From the IMG/VR virus record IMGVR_UViG_3300042860_002533, positions 1-63,793 of that record: a stretch of DNA of 63,793 nt, one strand, 5' to 3'. Shown here piece after piece: positions 1-63,793 of this stretch (position 1 is the stretch's first letter; the number at the start of each line of letters is the position of its first letter). The stretch comes from a virus. The notes below the pieces were generated by a model. That model was not told where the DNA came from and searched no databases. It worked only from the letters and a program-made list of their open reading frames with translations. The position numbers were made by a program, and so were the translations under genes.

Positions 1-219
1 CGGCCAGCCATGCCCAGCTTTCCTCTCACCGTCAGTCCAATAGTCCCGCAGATTCCCCGAATAGCGGCTGTGCCGCCGCCAATCGAAACGGCCGGAATGC
101 CTACCCCTAGCCAACTTTCGCTCCTGCACACGATCCTGCACAAACATCAGGGCCAGAAACACGCCAACCGCTAAGTTCAACCCCAACCAGACCGCAACAA
201 CCACGCACAGGTGCGTCAA
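1..219 (-). CDS. small membrane protein (partial, cut by window start)
   Basis: Left-hand copy of the gene complete at 63463-63693. It starts at TTG 219, overlapping the stop of the upstream gene (TTGA), and runs off the window. A hydrophobic segment occupies roughly residues 6-26, followed by a basic tail rich in Arg and Lys. Relative to the right-hand copy it carries V10I, E33D, L36S and R40K plus one silent change. It is probably a single-pass membrane protein; its function is unknown. Confidence 0.6.
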   Translation of the reverse strand, partial: MTHLCVVVAVWLGLNLAVGVFLALMFVQDRVQERKLARGRHSGRFDWRRHSRYSGNLRDYWTDGERKAGHGWP

Positions 220-319
220 TCTTCTTCCCAGCCGTCGTCATGCTCCCCCGATAGAAGCTGGTACCAGTAGCCGCCGAAATAGGCGAACACACCAACACCG
301 GCCAAGATCAAAGAACCAA
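1..319. repeat. terminal overlap, left copy
   Basis: Bases 1-319 recur at 63475-63793. Comparing the two copies by eye gives five mismatches, all within the first 200 bases; the remainder is identical. This is the signature of a circular or circularly permuted molecule whose contig overlaps itself. The mismatches mean that the two ends come from slightly different templates, or that the duplication is real and has diverged. Confidence 0.93.
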
Positions 320-8260: not shown

Positions 8261-8496
8261 AGGTAGTCCTTCTTCCGCCACACGGCAGCAGGAAAGTTCT
8301 TCTCAACACCGCTACGTTGCGCGGCCGCATCGGACGTATCCCCATAGACACGGCAGCCGAACACGCAAGGGTCGAAACCCTCAAAGTATTCCGCAGCCTC
8401 AGCCTCAGTGGTTGGTGTCCCGTCATGGGTGAGGCAGACCGGGGCGGAAATCCATCCAGCTTCCACCCCGGCCGTGATCCACTCGCGGTAGGTCAC
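8257..8496 (-). CDS. conserved small hypothetical protein, 79 aa
   Basis: GTG 8496 overlaps the upstream stop (GAGTGA). It contains APVCLTHDGTPTTEAEAAEY and GFDPCVFGCRVYGD, a signature I associate with a small protein common in actinophages. The Cys, His and Asp residues could bind a metal. No catalytic activity can be assigned. Confidence 0.7.
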   Translation of the reverse strand: MTYREWITAGVEAGWISAPVCLTHDGTPTTEAEAAEYFEGFDPCVFGCRVYGDTSDAAAQRSGVEKNFPAAVWRKKDYL

Positions 8497-8735
8497 TCCG
8501 CAGTCTCCCCAAACTGCTCGGCAATGTACTGCTCAACCTGGGACCGCCGCGCCTTCACCCGCCGCCCAAAGTAGGCGAACTTGATTGGCGTAGTGCCCTT
8601 CGCCCGCCAAACGTGAATCGTTGAAACGCTCACCCCCAGCATTTCGGCAACGTCCTCAATGTTGATGAGGTCAGACGAAACCTTTGCTGTCTCGTAGACC
8701 TCGCCGGTATCGCGCCAGTATTGGCTCCTTGCCAT
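8493..8735 (-). CDS. helix-turn-helix DNA-binding protein (HTH_17/excisionase-like)
   Basis: 80 residues with a MerR/Xis-type winged helix: LINIEDVAEMLGVSVSTIHV, then W and FAYFGRRVKARRSQVEQYIA. This is the layout of HTH_17 excisionase-like proteins. It sits after erf (one-base overlap, TAATG) rather than beside the integrase, so it may be a transcription regulator rather than a true excisionase; either is possible. Confidence 0.78.
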   Translation of the reverse strand: MARSQYWRDTGEVYETAKVSSDLINIEDVAEMLGVSVSTIHVWRAKGTTPIKFAYFGRRVKARRSQVEQYIAEQFGETAE

Positions 8736-12864: not shown

Positions 12865-13068
12865 CTATGAAAGCCCGTCCTCATAAACCGCGTCATGCAC
12901 CAACTCGTAGTGAATCGGCTCATTAAGCTCATCTGCGGTGTAGATCACCGGCTCCTGGCCGTCCAGCACGCGGCGAATCACACGCGCCAAATCAGCGCCG
13001 GACCATCCGAACAGAGCCGGATGCGAGCAGACCGCAGAAATCTTGGACAGCTTCTCCGCGTCGGTCAC
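12865..13068 (-). CDS. hypothetical protein, 67 aa
   Basis: GTG 13068 overlaps the upstream stop (CGGTGACC). Helical N-terminus (TDAEKLSKISAVCSHPALFG) followed by ADLARVIRRVLDG and a His/Tyr-rich, acidic C-terminus. Paired with the DUF6197-like gene in the divergent leftward transcript of the lysogeny region. Unknown function. Confidence 0.65.
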   Translation of the reverse strand: MTDAEKLSKISAVCSHPALFGWSGADLARVIRRVLDGQEPVIYTADELNEPIHYELVHDAVYEDGLS

Positions 13069-13436
13069 CGGGCCACCGACGCAATCGCCTTGTCCATGAC
13101 GGCAAGCACATCGCCGTGGGTCGTCTGAAGGTCGTCGTTGAACACAACCAGCGACTCGTAGCCCTCGGGCAAGAACTGGCGAACCACCCGCTGTGCGTCG
13201 TAGTCGGCAACGTAAGCCTCGTACACATGGTCGCTGGGGTCGTAGCGCAGGTACCCCACTGCGCCGTCCTGGTCGACAAAGGAACCGGCCGCAAGGCTGA
13301 CGGCGGCACGCAGGCAGTAGTTACCGCAGCCGTCCGTTAAGGAACCTTGATGCCAGCCGGACTCAACCAGCGAGCGTGCCTTCGCAAGCACCTCGCGTGT
13401 GCCCTGGCCTGCCTGACCTTTTGCCACTTCCACCAT
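13065..13436 (-). CDS. DUF6197-like protein, first gene of divergent leftward transcript
   Basis: ATG 13436 (MVEVAKGQ) is preceded by GGGACAGGGAG; longer frames run back through the operator region and are rejected. 123 residues with the pattern I associate with DUF6197: LAKARSLVESGWHQGS, CLRAAVSLAAG, and VVFNDDLQTTHGDVLAVMDK near the end. The family is common in actinobacteria and their phages and has no assigned activity. It is transcribed divergently from the repressor, so it is probably the first repressor-controlled lytic gene. Confidence 0.72.
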   Translation of the reverse strand: MVEVAKGQAGQGTREVLAKARSLVESGWHQGSLTDGCGNYCLRAAVSLAAGSFVDQDGAVGYLRYDPSDHVYEAYVADYDAQRVVRQFLPEGYESLVVFNDDLQTTHGDVLAVMDKAIASVAR

Positions 13437-13625
13437 CTCCCTGTCCCTGAGAGCTGAACTACAACAATGTAACTCTATCATGTATGCGGTACCAGATGTC
13501 AACTCAAACATCGGATTGATACCGTATGCGGTGAATGTACGGTCTGCAACTACTTCCATAGTCAAGCATACATGATACTCATACGCCTCTATGCAGGAGG
13601 GGCACGCATAGAGTAGGCTTGAATT
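13437..13625. promoter_or_regulatory. divergent operator/promoter region between repressor and lytic operon
   Basis: It holds related dyads: ATCATGTATGC at 13477-13487 and its perfect inverse GCATACATGAT at 13566-13576, the palindrome ACCGTATGCGGT at 13521-13532, TATGCGGT again at 13483-13490, and an 8-bp inverted repeat CTCTATGC/GCATAGAG at 13587-13594 and 13606-13613, just before the repressor start. Repeated half-sites between divergent genes are the expected layout of repressor operators controlling both promoters. Exact promoter hexamers were not fixed. Confidence 0.75.
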
Positions 13626-14183
13626 ATGACCACAGCACTTAGAGCAACGGTCGGCCCAGCTTGGACGTGGGGGGACCGCATCAGAAAAGTCAGACGAGAC
13701 ATAGCAAGACTCAGCCAGGGCAACATGGCCCACAGGCTCGGAGTCAACACGGCAACACTTAGTTCGTGGGAGGGCAACAGGGCCACCCCGCACCGCACCG
13801 TGGCCGAAAGACTGGCGCACAAGATGGAGGAACTGTTTCCTGGTAAAGTCACTGCTGCGTGGCTGCTGGGCCAGGAACCGGGCGATCCGGAGGCAAGTCC
13901 AGTCGGAACGGCCGGGATTACCCGCGATCCGAACTACGTCGACCTCATCGAAAATCCCTGGCTCCCCCGGATGGACTCGAACCATCAACCGCCCGATGGA
14001 AGTGTTCTTGCTGGTCAAAGCCCCGAAGTCCTTTCCGTTTCCAGGTCGCGCCAGATTAGGCAGCTAGAAGATAGACCGTTCTTGTTGAATACGCAAGAAG
14101 ATTCTCCGGTTTGCGGATTTTCTGCACGTCTGCTAAATAGTTTCATCCGCAAGGACCGTCAAGACCTGGGCGGTGCGGCATGA
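13626..14183 (+). CDS. HTH repressor containing attP (immunity repressor candidate)
   Basis: 185 residues. Residues about 17-66 form a Cro/C1-type helix-turn-helix (RIRKVRRDIARLSQGNMAHR, LGVNTATLSSWEGNRATPHR). Residues 112-122 are encoded by the tRNA-like attP core at 13959-13990. The tail after the core looks unlike a folded domain and ends LGGAA, an Ala-Ala terminus like ssrA-type degradation tags. Integration would replace everything after the core, as in mycobacteriophages BPs, Brujita and Charlie, where only the shortened prophage repressor is stable. Its stop overlaps the integrase start (ATGA). Confidence 0.82.
   Translation: MTTALRATVGPAWTWGDRIRKVRRDIARLSQGNMAHRLGVNTATLSSWEGNRATPHRTVAERLAHKMEELFPGKVTAAWLLGQEPGDPEASPVGTAGITRDPNYVDLIENPWLPRMDSNHQPPDGSVLAGQSPEVLSVSRSRQIRQLEDRPFLLNTQEDSPVCGFSARLLNSFIRKDRQDLGGAA
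13959..13990 (-). other. attP core (3' end of a tRNA, Asn-like)
   Basis: Read on the minus strand, this is a tRNA 3' portion: a perfect five-base T-stem (GATGG/CCATC) around the loop TTCGAGT, the acceptor half CGGGGGA, discriminator G and CCA. No matching 5' half lies nearby. Such cores are the usual target of tyrosine integrases. The TTCGAGTCCA arm, G discriminator and GCCA end resemble bacterial tRNA-Asn; the isotype is inferred. It lies inside the repressor coding frame and 190 bases before the integrase. Confidence 0.85.
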
Positions 14184-15097
14184 CTAGGCGGCGAGGTAGC
14201 GGAATGCATTGCACCAGTTACCAACTGCCCCAAGCGTGGGAGGACGCAGTTGAGGGGTGGATGCACTGGATGGTGGCCGCAAGTATCGCCAAACGGTCCA
14301 GGGAAACCAGGAGAAGTCACATCCGATCCACGGCCAGGGAACTCGACACCCGAACACCGGGCGAAGTGACAACACCCATGCTGGTGACCCTGTTCGCCAT
14401 GCAGCCGGGATGGGGACAGGAGCATCGGCGCGGCATCCGAACCTCGCTAGTGCAGTTCTACAACTGGTGTCTGAAGAACGAAGCTTCAGACCACAACCCC
14501 GCTGATGGGCTGCCGCAGATACCGGAATCCAAACCCAAGCCCAGGCCCGCACCCGAATGGCTGTGGGACGAAATTCTGGTCAACTCGGAACCGCGAGTGC
14601 GGGTGATGATCCGGCTGGCCGGTGAAGCTGGACTCCGCAGGGCCGAAGTCTCCCAAGTCCATCGTGACGATGTTGTGTGGGACGGCGACGGGTGGAGCCT
14701 CGTCGTCCACGGCAAGGGCGACAAGCAGAGGGTCGTCCCGATCAACGAAAGCCTTGCTGAAGTGATCCAGCGAGGACCGACGTGGGCACCACCGGGATAC
14801 CCCAACCTGGGCTACTTGTTCCCCTCCTATGACCAGTGGGGGAACAAGCTGGCTCCGCACATGAGCGCGGATCGGGTCGGCCGTCTAGTCGGTGAAGTGA
14901 TGGGACAAGGCTGGACGATGCACAAGCTGAGGCACCGCTACGCCACTAGAGGTTTCGCCGGAACGAAGAACCTCAGGGCCGTACAAGAGGCTTTGGGTCA
15001 TGCCTCGGTTGCCACGACTCAGCGTTATGTGGCGGTGTCGGCACCGGAGATACGGGCCGTTTCGGAAGCTGTTTACCAAGGCGGCAAGACGGCGTGA
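14180..15097 (+). CDS. int: tyrosine integrase
   Basis: 305 residues, a short tyrosine recombinase. The N-terminal core-binding domain is helical. The catalytic set is complete: Arg153 (AGLRRAE), Lys182 (GKGDKQR), His248-x-x-Arg251 (MHKLRHR), His274 (ALGHAS) and Tyr283 (TTQRYVA). It should recombine attP with a host tRNA gene. ATG 14180 overlaps the repressor stop by four bases, so expression is coupled to the repressor transcript. The C-terminus GGKTA is a weaker candidate for a degradation tag. Confidence 0.95.
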   Translation: MTRRRGSGMHCTSYQLPQAWEDAVEGWMHWMVAASIAKRSRETRRSHIRSTARELDTRTPGEVTTPMLVTLFAMQPGWGQEHRRGIRTSLVQFYNWCLKNEASDHNPADGLPQIPESKPKPRPAPEWLWDEILVNSEPRVRVMIRLAGEAGLRRAEVSQVHRDDVVWDGDGWSLVVHGKGDKQRVVPINESLAEVIQRGPTWAPPGYPNLGYLFPSYDQWGNKLAPHMSADRVGRLVGEVMGQGWTMHKLRHRYATRGFAGTKNLRAVQEALGHASVATTQRYVAVSAPEIRAVSEAVYQGGKTA

Positions 15098-63292: not shown

Positions 63293-63485
63293 TCTCAAAC
63301 CGCCAATCAGTAACCCAACGAGTCAAATAGCCGCCCTCGTAAGACTCAACCCGCAAACCCAACTCGGCAATCACCGCGTCAGCGCACCACGCAACTTCCC
63401 CCGGCCGCATCGCCGGAACGAAATCCCTCAACACCTCGGCCACACGGTCACGCAAACCGTGCTCATTCGCCTCGCGGCCAGCCAT
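63285..63485 (-). CDS. hypothetical protein, 66 aa (paralogue)
   Basis: ATG 63485 after GAGAGGAAAG; the longer frame to 63617 lies inside the upstream gene. LRDRVAEVLRDFVPAMRPGE, then CADAVIAELGLRVESYEGGY and TDWRFENE. Shares its core with the gene at 63044. Confidence 0.68.
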   Translation of the reverse strand: MAGREANEHGLRDRVAEVLRDFVPAMRPGEVAWCADAVIAELGLRVESYEGGYLTRWVTDWRFENE

Positions 63486-63693
63486 GCCCAGCTTTCCTCT
63501 CACCGTCAGTCCAATAGTCCCGCAGATTCCCCGAATAGCGGCTGTGCCGCCGCCAATCGAAACGGCCGGAATGCTTACCCCTGGCCGACTTTCGATCCTG
63601 CACACGATCCTGCACAAACATCAGGGCCAGAAACACGCCAACCGCTAAGTTCAACCCCAACCAGATCGCAACAACCACGCACAGGTGCGTCAA
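63463..63693 (-). CDS. small membrane protein, 76 aa
   Basis: TTG 63693, overlapping the stop of the preceding gene (TTGA). A membrane helix at about 6-26 (VVVAIWLGLNLAVGVFLALM), then a basic tail (DRKSARGKHSGRFDWRRHSR). It is the complete copy of the gene truncated at the window start. Confidence 0.62.
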   Translation of the reverse strand: MTHLCVVVAIWLGLNLAVGVFLALMFVQDRVQDRKSARGKHSGRFDWRRHSRYSGNLRDYWTDGERKAGHGWPRGE

Positions 63694-63793
63694 TCTTCTT
63701 CCCAGCCGTCGTCATGCTCCCCCGATAGAAGCTGGTACCAGTAGCCGCCGAAATAGGCGAACACACCAACACCGGCCAAGATCAAAGAACCAA
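63475..63793. repeat. terminal overlap, right copy
   Basis: Repeats bases 1-319 with five mismatches. It also contains the 3' part of the 41-aa membrane protein gene (63690-63793, minus strand), whose start lies beyond the window and is complete at 216-341. Confidence 0.93.

What the first reader, a model, noticed from the sequence alone, without database searches (positions are those of the whole stretch)
13626..15097. attP lies inside the repressor gene: integration-dependent immunity switch
The HTH repressor frame (13626-14183) runs straight through a tRNA 3'-end core at 13959-13990. The integrase begins in a 4-base overlap with the repressor stop. The viral repressor ends LGGAA, an Ala-Ala terminus like ssrA tags. 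In BPs, Brujita and Charlie the same layout makes integration remove a degradation tag, so only the prophage makes stable repressor. Here the prophage form would keep about 122 phage codons and then read into host DNA antisense to the tRNA. The site is embedded differently in sequence from those I know, so this may be a new branch of the system.
Basis: partly seen in the sequence, partly recalled or inferred. Interest (0 to 1): 0.88.

Follow-up and report, generated by a model that had tools for sequence, protein, structure and literature searches.

The report
tRNA-Asn integration-dependent phage repressor switch
This phage keeps its chromosomal insertion site inside its own repressor gene, so that inserting next to a bacterial tRNA-Asn gene cuts off the repressor's tail; this is a new member of a switch already known from related phages, here using a tRNA-Asn insertion site that the papers I could read do not describe for it.

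Summary
A helix-turn-helix repressor ORF (13626-14183, 185 aa) overlaps a tyrosine integrase ORF (14180-15097) by ATGA. It contains 37 bp (13961-13997) identical to the antisense 3' half of mycobacterial tRNA-Asn(GTT). An exact 36-mer search of one genome per GTDB species returned 23 places. 22 are tRNA-Asn genes, 17 of them in records titled Mycobacterium or Mycolicibacterium. In silico integration at all 22 gives the same 124-aa repressor, ending ...LPRMDSNHQPPD and then TAA. That stop is the antisense of the anticodon loop, and the tRNA is rebuilt intact. Seven Mycobacterium lysogens carrying related integrases show the predicted junctions. In two, both junctions lie about 51-52 kb apart on one contig, and relatives keep the empty site. 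The degron is the weakest link: 11 of 17 viral-frame tails in this branch end in -AA, against 2 of 34 in the unused frames, but the closest relative ends in SLEP and this integrase ends in KTA. No protein stability was measured. This is integration-dependent immunity of the BPs/Brujita/Charlie kind: a new member using tRNA-Asn, not a new mechanism.

The parts
13626..14183 (+). Immunity repressor gene, viral form (185 aa, C-terminus QDLGGAA)
   Evidence: ORF; PHROG 2328 repressor 8e-8, HTH_31 6.8e-5; AlphaFold HTH domain residues about 11-88 at pLDDT about 90, residues 91-185 mostly low-confidence
13626..13997 (+). Part of the repressor gene kept in the prophage (124 codons); the stop TAA comes from host DNA
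   Evidence: In silico attL for 22 tRNA-Asn hosts: all give 124 aa ending ENPWLPRMDSNHQPPD
13961..13997 (+). attP common core: antisense copy of the tRNA-Asn 3' half (anticodon stem to acceptor end)
   Evidence: Exact 36-mer in 22 tRNA-Asn(GTT) genes; identity 37-41 bp; same core in L002
13998..14183 (+). Virus-only repressor tail (61 codons and stop), removed by integration; ends GGAA
   Evidence: Rep similarity to L002 ends at residue 131; -AA in 11/17 rep-frame tails vs 2/34 in other frames
14180..15097 (+). Tyrosine integrase, 4-bp overlap with the repressor; C-terminus GGKTA
   Evidence: PF00589 4.8e-19; residues R153/R154, H248, R251, H274, Y283 invariant in 13 relatives; tRNA-Asn integrase clade 99/97
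13521..13532 (+). Candidate repressor operator ACCGTATGCGGT; second GTATGCGGT at 13482-13490
   Evidence: CCGTATGCGGT also lies in the L002 rep upstream region; not tested
13587..13613 (.). Inverted repeat CTCTATGC-N11-GCATAGAG just upstream of the Rep start
   Evidence: role unknown
13065..13463 (-). Divergent gene (DUF6197) in the place where cro lies in BPs-type phages; exact start not determined
   Evidence: PF19698 1.5e-15; apparent homologue in the same place in L002 (by eye)

Best explanation
The locus is an integration-dependent immunity switch. In the virus, Rep and Int are made from overlapping genes as one module, and Rep carries a 61-residue C-terminal tail ending GGAA. Int recombines the attP core inside rep with the 3' half of host tRNA-Asn(GTT). 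At attL the rep frame then runs through the core and stops on TAA, the antisense of tRNA positions 35-37 (anticodon UU and A37), giving a 124-aa Rep that keeps its HTH domain. The tRNA is rebuilt intact. The tail and int move to the far end of the prophage, away from the rep promoter. The long form is most likely kept low by proteolysis and the short form is stable, so immunity follows integration. Shown from sequence: layout, core, joined products and tRNA repair for this phage; real junctions in relatives. Inferred: co-transcription, Int activity, degradation of the long form, repression by the short form.
For: Layout and core. In silico attL gives a 124-aa product and an intact tRNA-Asn with 22 of 22 host genes. 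Integrase relatives (48-56% identity) in Mycobacterium genomes lie beside tRNA-Asn cores. At the intact tRNA-Asn of seven of these genomes a rep frame reads into the core and stops: six on the anticodon-loop TAA, one (G270) 19 codons on in another frame. HTH matches in G206, G241, G202, G270. G241 and G306 have both junctions on one contig, about 51.4 and 51.8 kb apart; relatives G097, G063 and G080 have the G241 flanks contiguous. Rep-frame tails end in -AA in 11/17 versus 2/34 control frames, Fisher p=1.5e-5; the odd-frame G270 Rep has its LALAA end in that very frame. Precedent: PMC4557955, PMC9262239, PMC8092301, PMC5559632.
Against: No lysogen of this phage itself was found. The host is inferred from the core alone, and phage GC (56%) is well below mycobacterial GC (about 67%). 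The nearest relative L002 ends SLEP, so the tag is not conserved even in its own pair. Int ends KTA, without an ssrA-like tag. The divergent gene is DUF6197, not a Cro-like HTH protein. Some integrases of the clade, such as prophi79-1, show no repressor at the prophage end, so the integrase alone does not prove the switch. The 17 tails are not independent by descent.
Confidence: 0.86

Rival explanations
1. attP lies inside rep and integration truncates Rep, but the tail is not a degron. The long form is active, or is made inactive by interfering with oligomerisation or DNA binding, and the -AA end is incidental.
For: L002 ends SLEP; G312, G202 and L087 end VSGF, ASGM and SVSC. BPs long and short forms bind DNA alike in vitro, and mixed tetramers were suggested (PMC4557955).
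Against: -AA in 11/17 rep-frame tails versus 2/34 control frames. Known functional degrons in this family include non-AA ends: Angel gp33 of the BPs group ends DKAS and A135E stabilises BPs gp33 (PMC4557955).
Confidence: 0.25
2. Ordinary integrase with a tRNA-Asn attP whose core happens to lie in an upstream ORF; truncation has no regulatory meaning.
For: prophi79-1 carries an integrase of this clade but no repressor at its prophage end.
Against: In seven lysogens and several viral contigs, repressors of different sequence all read into the same core and stop just past it. The same layout is experimentally proven in BPs, Brujita and Charlie relatives.
Confidence: 0.07
3. Decayed or mis-assembled locus: a chimeric contig joining a tRNA fragment to phage genes.
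For: Virus record from a metagenome-type collection, with no isolate.
Against: An independent contig (L002) has the same gene order, the identical core and the same 4-bp overlap; both reading frames are intact; complete virion gene set.
Confidence: 0.02

Closest known systems
Mycobacteriophage BPs and cluster G (Angel) rep33/int32 (Broussard 2013, PMC3557535, cited from other papers; PMC4557955)
   Same: attP inside rep; rep and int overlap; attB is a tRNA 3' half read antisense; host DNA supplies the stop just past the core; Int 45% identical
   Different: BPs uses tRNA-Arg, a 33-residue tail and a DKAS-type end; here tRNA-Asn, a 61-residue tail, GGAA, and no Cro-like divergent gene
M. abscessus prophage clusters with integration-dependent immunity (MabB, C, H, K, N, O; PMC8092301)
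   Same: Truncated Rep at attL with a stop formed at or near the junction; some with -AA on Rep, others without
   Different: Those systems use attB-1, 2, 8, 12, 13 and 14. prophi79-1 (MabQ, attB-4) has an integrase of the tRNA-Asn clade but is not listed as integration-dependent and shows no repressor at its prophage end
Gordonia phages Obliviate, CaptainKirk2 and others (PMC4929511, PMC5559632)
   Same: Repressor HTH region 37-39% identical; attP in rep; -DAA tag on Rep
   Different: tRNA-Thr, -Arg, -Ser, -Lys and other targets; more distant integrase; no tRNA-Asn site in their table
Mycobacterium prophages at tRNA-Asn found here (G306, G125, G241, G270, G206, G312, G202)
   Same: Same integrase clade, same tRNA, same attL logic
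   Different: Mostly different repressor domains; G270 reads another frame; tails of different length and ending

Membership tests
Integration-dependent immunity (BPs/Brujita/Charlie type) | attP common core inside the repressor reading frame | tested here: met
Integration-dependent immunity (BPs/Brujita/Charlie type) | Repressor and tyrosine integrase adjacent and co-directional (co-transcribed) | tested here: met
   ATGA overlap; co-transcription itself not testable here
Integration-dependent immunity (BPs/Brujita/Charlie type) | attB overlaps the 3' end of a host tRNA, rebuilt by the phage core | tested here: met
   22 tRNA-Asn genes; ARAGORN on in silico attL 22/22
Integration-dependent immunity (BPs/Brujita/Charlie type) | Stop codon at or near attL gives a truncated prophage repressor | tested here: met
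   124 aa in silico; real junctions in relatives
Integration-dependent immunity (BPs/Brujita/Charlie type) | Viral repressor bears a C-terminal degradation signal | tested here: inconclusive
   GGAA present; branch 11/17 -AA; nearest relative SLEP; degradation not measured
[quoted passage not shown]
   GGKTA. Not diagnostic: MabC, K, N, O and H integrases lack it too (PMC8092301)
Integration-dependent immunity (BPs/Brujita/Charlie type) | Divergent cro-like gene across an operator region | tested here: inconclusive
   Divergent gene present but it is DUF6197; candidate operator repeats
Integration-dependent immunity (BPs/Brujita/Charlie type) | Only the prophage form gives immunity; viral form unstable | not testable with these tools
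   needs bench work

The most novel reading that the evidence does not exclude
A tRNA-Asn branch of the switch in which unrelated repressors have been placed in the one frame whose stop is templated by the conserved anticodon loop (UU-A37), so that a host with tRNA-Asn(GTT) supplies the same TAA. In part of the branch (L002, G312, G202) the viral form may be switched off by a signal other than an ssrA-like tag.
Probability: 0.4. Interest if true: 0.5.

Novelty: new member of a known kind. Interest (0 to 1): 0.36.

Why it matters
It adds a tRNA-Asn target and a set of naturally swapped repressor/tail pairs to a switch in which one recombination event decides integration and immunity together. 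Tails ending LAA, DAA, SAA, RAA, GGAA, VA, SGF and SLEP beside similar integrases make the open question of which C-terminal signals work testable by direct comparison. The junction rule (stop from the anticodon loop) also gives a simple way to find such prophages in mycobacterial genomes.

Tried and rejected
Megablast of the locus against phage records: no match. Exact core in IMG/VR: only L002. M. brisbanense L010/L011 looked like an occupied site, but its integrase is different and no repressor reads into the core. The 'Bifidobacterium breve' MAG hit (L027) briefly looked like a junction (Rep residues 91-124 aligned); the frame has no repressor and the flanks look mycobacterial, so it is probably a mis-binned contig. 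G270 first seemed to lack a repressor and an -AA tail because only one frame was read; in the third frame both appear. prophi79-1 (tRNA-Asn clade integrase) has no repressor at its end and is not such a switch as far as seen. Promoter scan: no sigma-70-like site upstream of rep; the one hit lies downstream of int. A first version of the tail-count script failed on one locus and was rerun.

Full report
What is there. A repressor-like ORF (13626-14183, 185 aa) is followed with an ATGA overlap by a tyrosine integrase (14180-15097). The repressor has a weak HTH_31 match (7e-5) and matches PHROG 'transcriptional repressor' 2328 (8e-8). The integrase matches PF00589 (5e-19), and the residues R153/R154, H248, R251, H274 and Y283, which I read as its catalytic set, are invariant among 13 relatives. 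The window is a virus record with terminase, portal, capsid, tape measure, endolysin, helicase and exonuclease genes.

The core. The sequence CTCCCCCGGATGGACTCGAACCATCAACCGCCCGAT (13962-13997) lies in the repressor frame. An exact search of one genome for each of 84,980 species returned 23 places. ARAGORN of them tRNA-Asn(GTT); the 23rd (L010) is an attachment-site remnant in M. brisbanense. Of the 22 tRNA genes, 17 are in records titled Mycobacterium or Mycolicibacterium, one is an uncultured Mycolicibacterium MAG and most of the rest are unnamed actinobacterial MAGs. All 22 continue GATTAACAG where the phage has GATGGAAG. Identity between attP and these attB sites is 37-41 bp. The core thus spans the tRNA from the anticodon stem to the 3' end.

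What integration does. Joining the phage left side to each of the 22 host sides gives the same 124-residue repressor...ENPWLPRMDSNHQPPD, ending on TAA, and ARAGORN finds an intact tRNA-Asn in each join. The stop is the reverse complement of tRNA positions 35-37. The 61-residue viral tail, ending GGAA, and the integrase go to the other end of the prophage. A structure prediction from six sequences places a confident HTH domain at residues about 11-88 and almost nothing confident after residue 90, so the truncation leaves the DNA-binding domain whole.

Relatives. An independent virus contig (L002) has an integrase 74% and a repressor 65% identical, the identical core and the same 4-bp overlap, and an apparent DUF6197 gene in the same divergent place, but its viral repressor ends QDLGSLEP. 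Among 396 Mycobacterium genomes, 46 carry an integrase at E<=1e-40. The nearest (48-56%) mostly lie beside tRNA-Asn cores. The intact tRNA-Asn copies in those genomes have a repressor frame reading into them: G125, G206, G241, G312, G202 and G306 end on the anticodon-loop TAA, and G270 reads a different frame and stops 19 codons on. Pfam HTH matches were found for G206, G241, G202 and G270; G306 had none, and G125 and G312 were not scanned but resemble scanned relatives by eye. In G241 the two junctions are at about 4264884 and 4316289 on one chromosome; relatives G097, G063 and G080 have the same two flanks next to each other, i.e. the empty site. The integrase tree puts the window and L002 together (100/100) inside a clade (99/97) of largely tRNA-Asn integrases, sister to a clade with the BPs-group (Angel) integrase.

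The degradation signal. Reading the tail in the frame of the repressor for 17 tRNA-Asn systems (10 virus contigs, 7 lysogens), 11 end in -AA; reading the same DNA in the two other frames, 2 of 34 do (Fisher p=1.5e-5). The G270 repressor, which uses another frame, has its LALAA end in that frame. The exceptions are L002 (SLEP), L087 (SVSC), L139 (ELVA), G241 (RFVA), G312 (VSGF) and G202 (ASGM). Non-AA ends are known in this kind of system: Angel gp33 ends DKAS, and A135E stabilises BPs gp33 (PMC4557955). M. abscessus systems also include Reps without -AA (PMC8092301). So proteolysis is the likely but unproven means of silencing the viral form, and the alanines themselves are not essential to the branch. 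These sequences share descent, so the p-value is a guide only.

What is known. The published system has attP inside rep, a host-supplied stop at or near attL, an unstable viral Rep, a stable prophage Rep and, mostly, tRNA attB sites (PMC9262239, PMC4557955, PMC5559632, PMC8092301, PMC6109161). This locus meets the core structural features that could be tested. It differs in its tRNA-Asn target, the length of the tail, the untagged integrase and DUF6197 in place of a Cro-like divergent gene. I found no paper in the held library that describes a tRNA-Asn integration-dependent system, but the founding paper itself was not available to read, so that absence is weak.

Verdict. New member of a known kind, well supported structurally; the functional step is inferred. 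The host is probably a mycobacterium or close relative, with the caution that the phage GC content (56%) is well below that of the candidate hosts (about 67%).

Noticed in passing
window 1-319 and 63475-63793: The two ends of the contig are 319-bp direct repeats with 5 mismatches, suggesting a nearly complete, circularly assembled genome.
   Followed up: partly
window 8493-8735 (-): Small HTH_17/MerR-like protein matching PHROG 66 'excisionase and transcriptional regulator' (1.6e-11). A review says these switches do not evidently encode a directionality factor, so this is a candidate one.
   Followed up: no
L049 and L079 (G270): One lysogen's repressor reads the tRNA core in another frame, runs antisense through tRNA-Asn before stopping, and has a LALAA end in its viral form.
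   Followed up: partly
L048 (G312), L053 (G202): Viral repressor tails end VSGF and ASGM, resembling the VAGF end of the Angel integrase, possibly another degradation signal.
   Followed up: no
L046, L049, L050, L054: Several clade integrases end in -AS (GAAS, GQAS, GEAS, AAAS), like the DKAS end of the BPs-group repressor.
   Followed up: no
L010 and L011 (M. brisbanense): The same tRNA-Asn site is occupied by an unrelated element with a different integrase.
   Followed up: partly
L027 (MAG titled Bifidobacterium breve): The contig carries a mycobacterial-looking tRNA-Asn and flank; probably mis-binned.
   Followed up: no
MW584153 and MW584157 (M. abscessus prophages prophi79-1 and prophi68-1, both attB-4): Both clusters use attB-4, which looks like tRNA-Asn, but neither shows a repressor at its prophage end.
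   Followed up: partly
L003 3998-4870: The integrase reading frame of this virus contig is broken by a frameshift, although its repressor with core and -RRAA end is intact.
   Followed up: no
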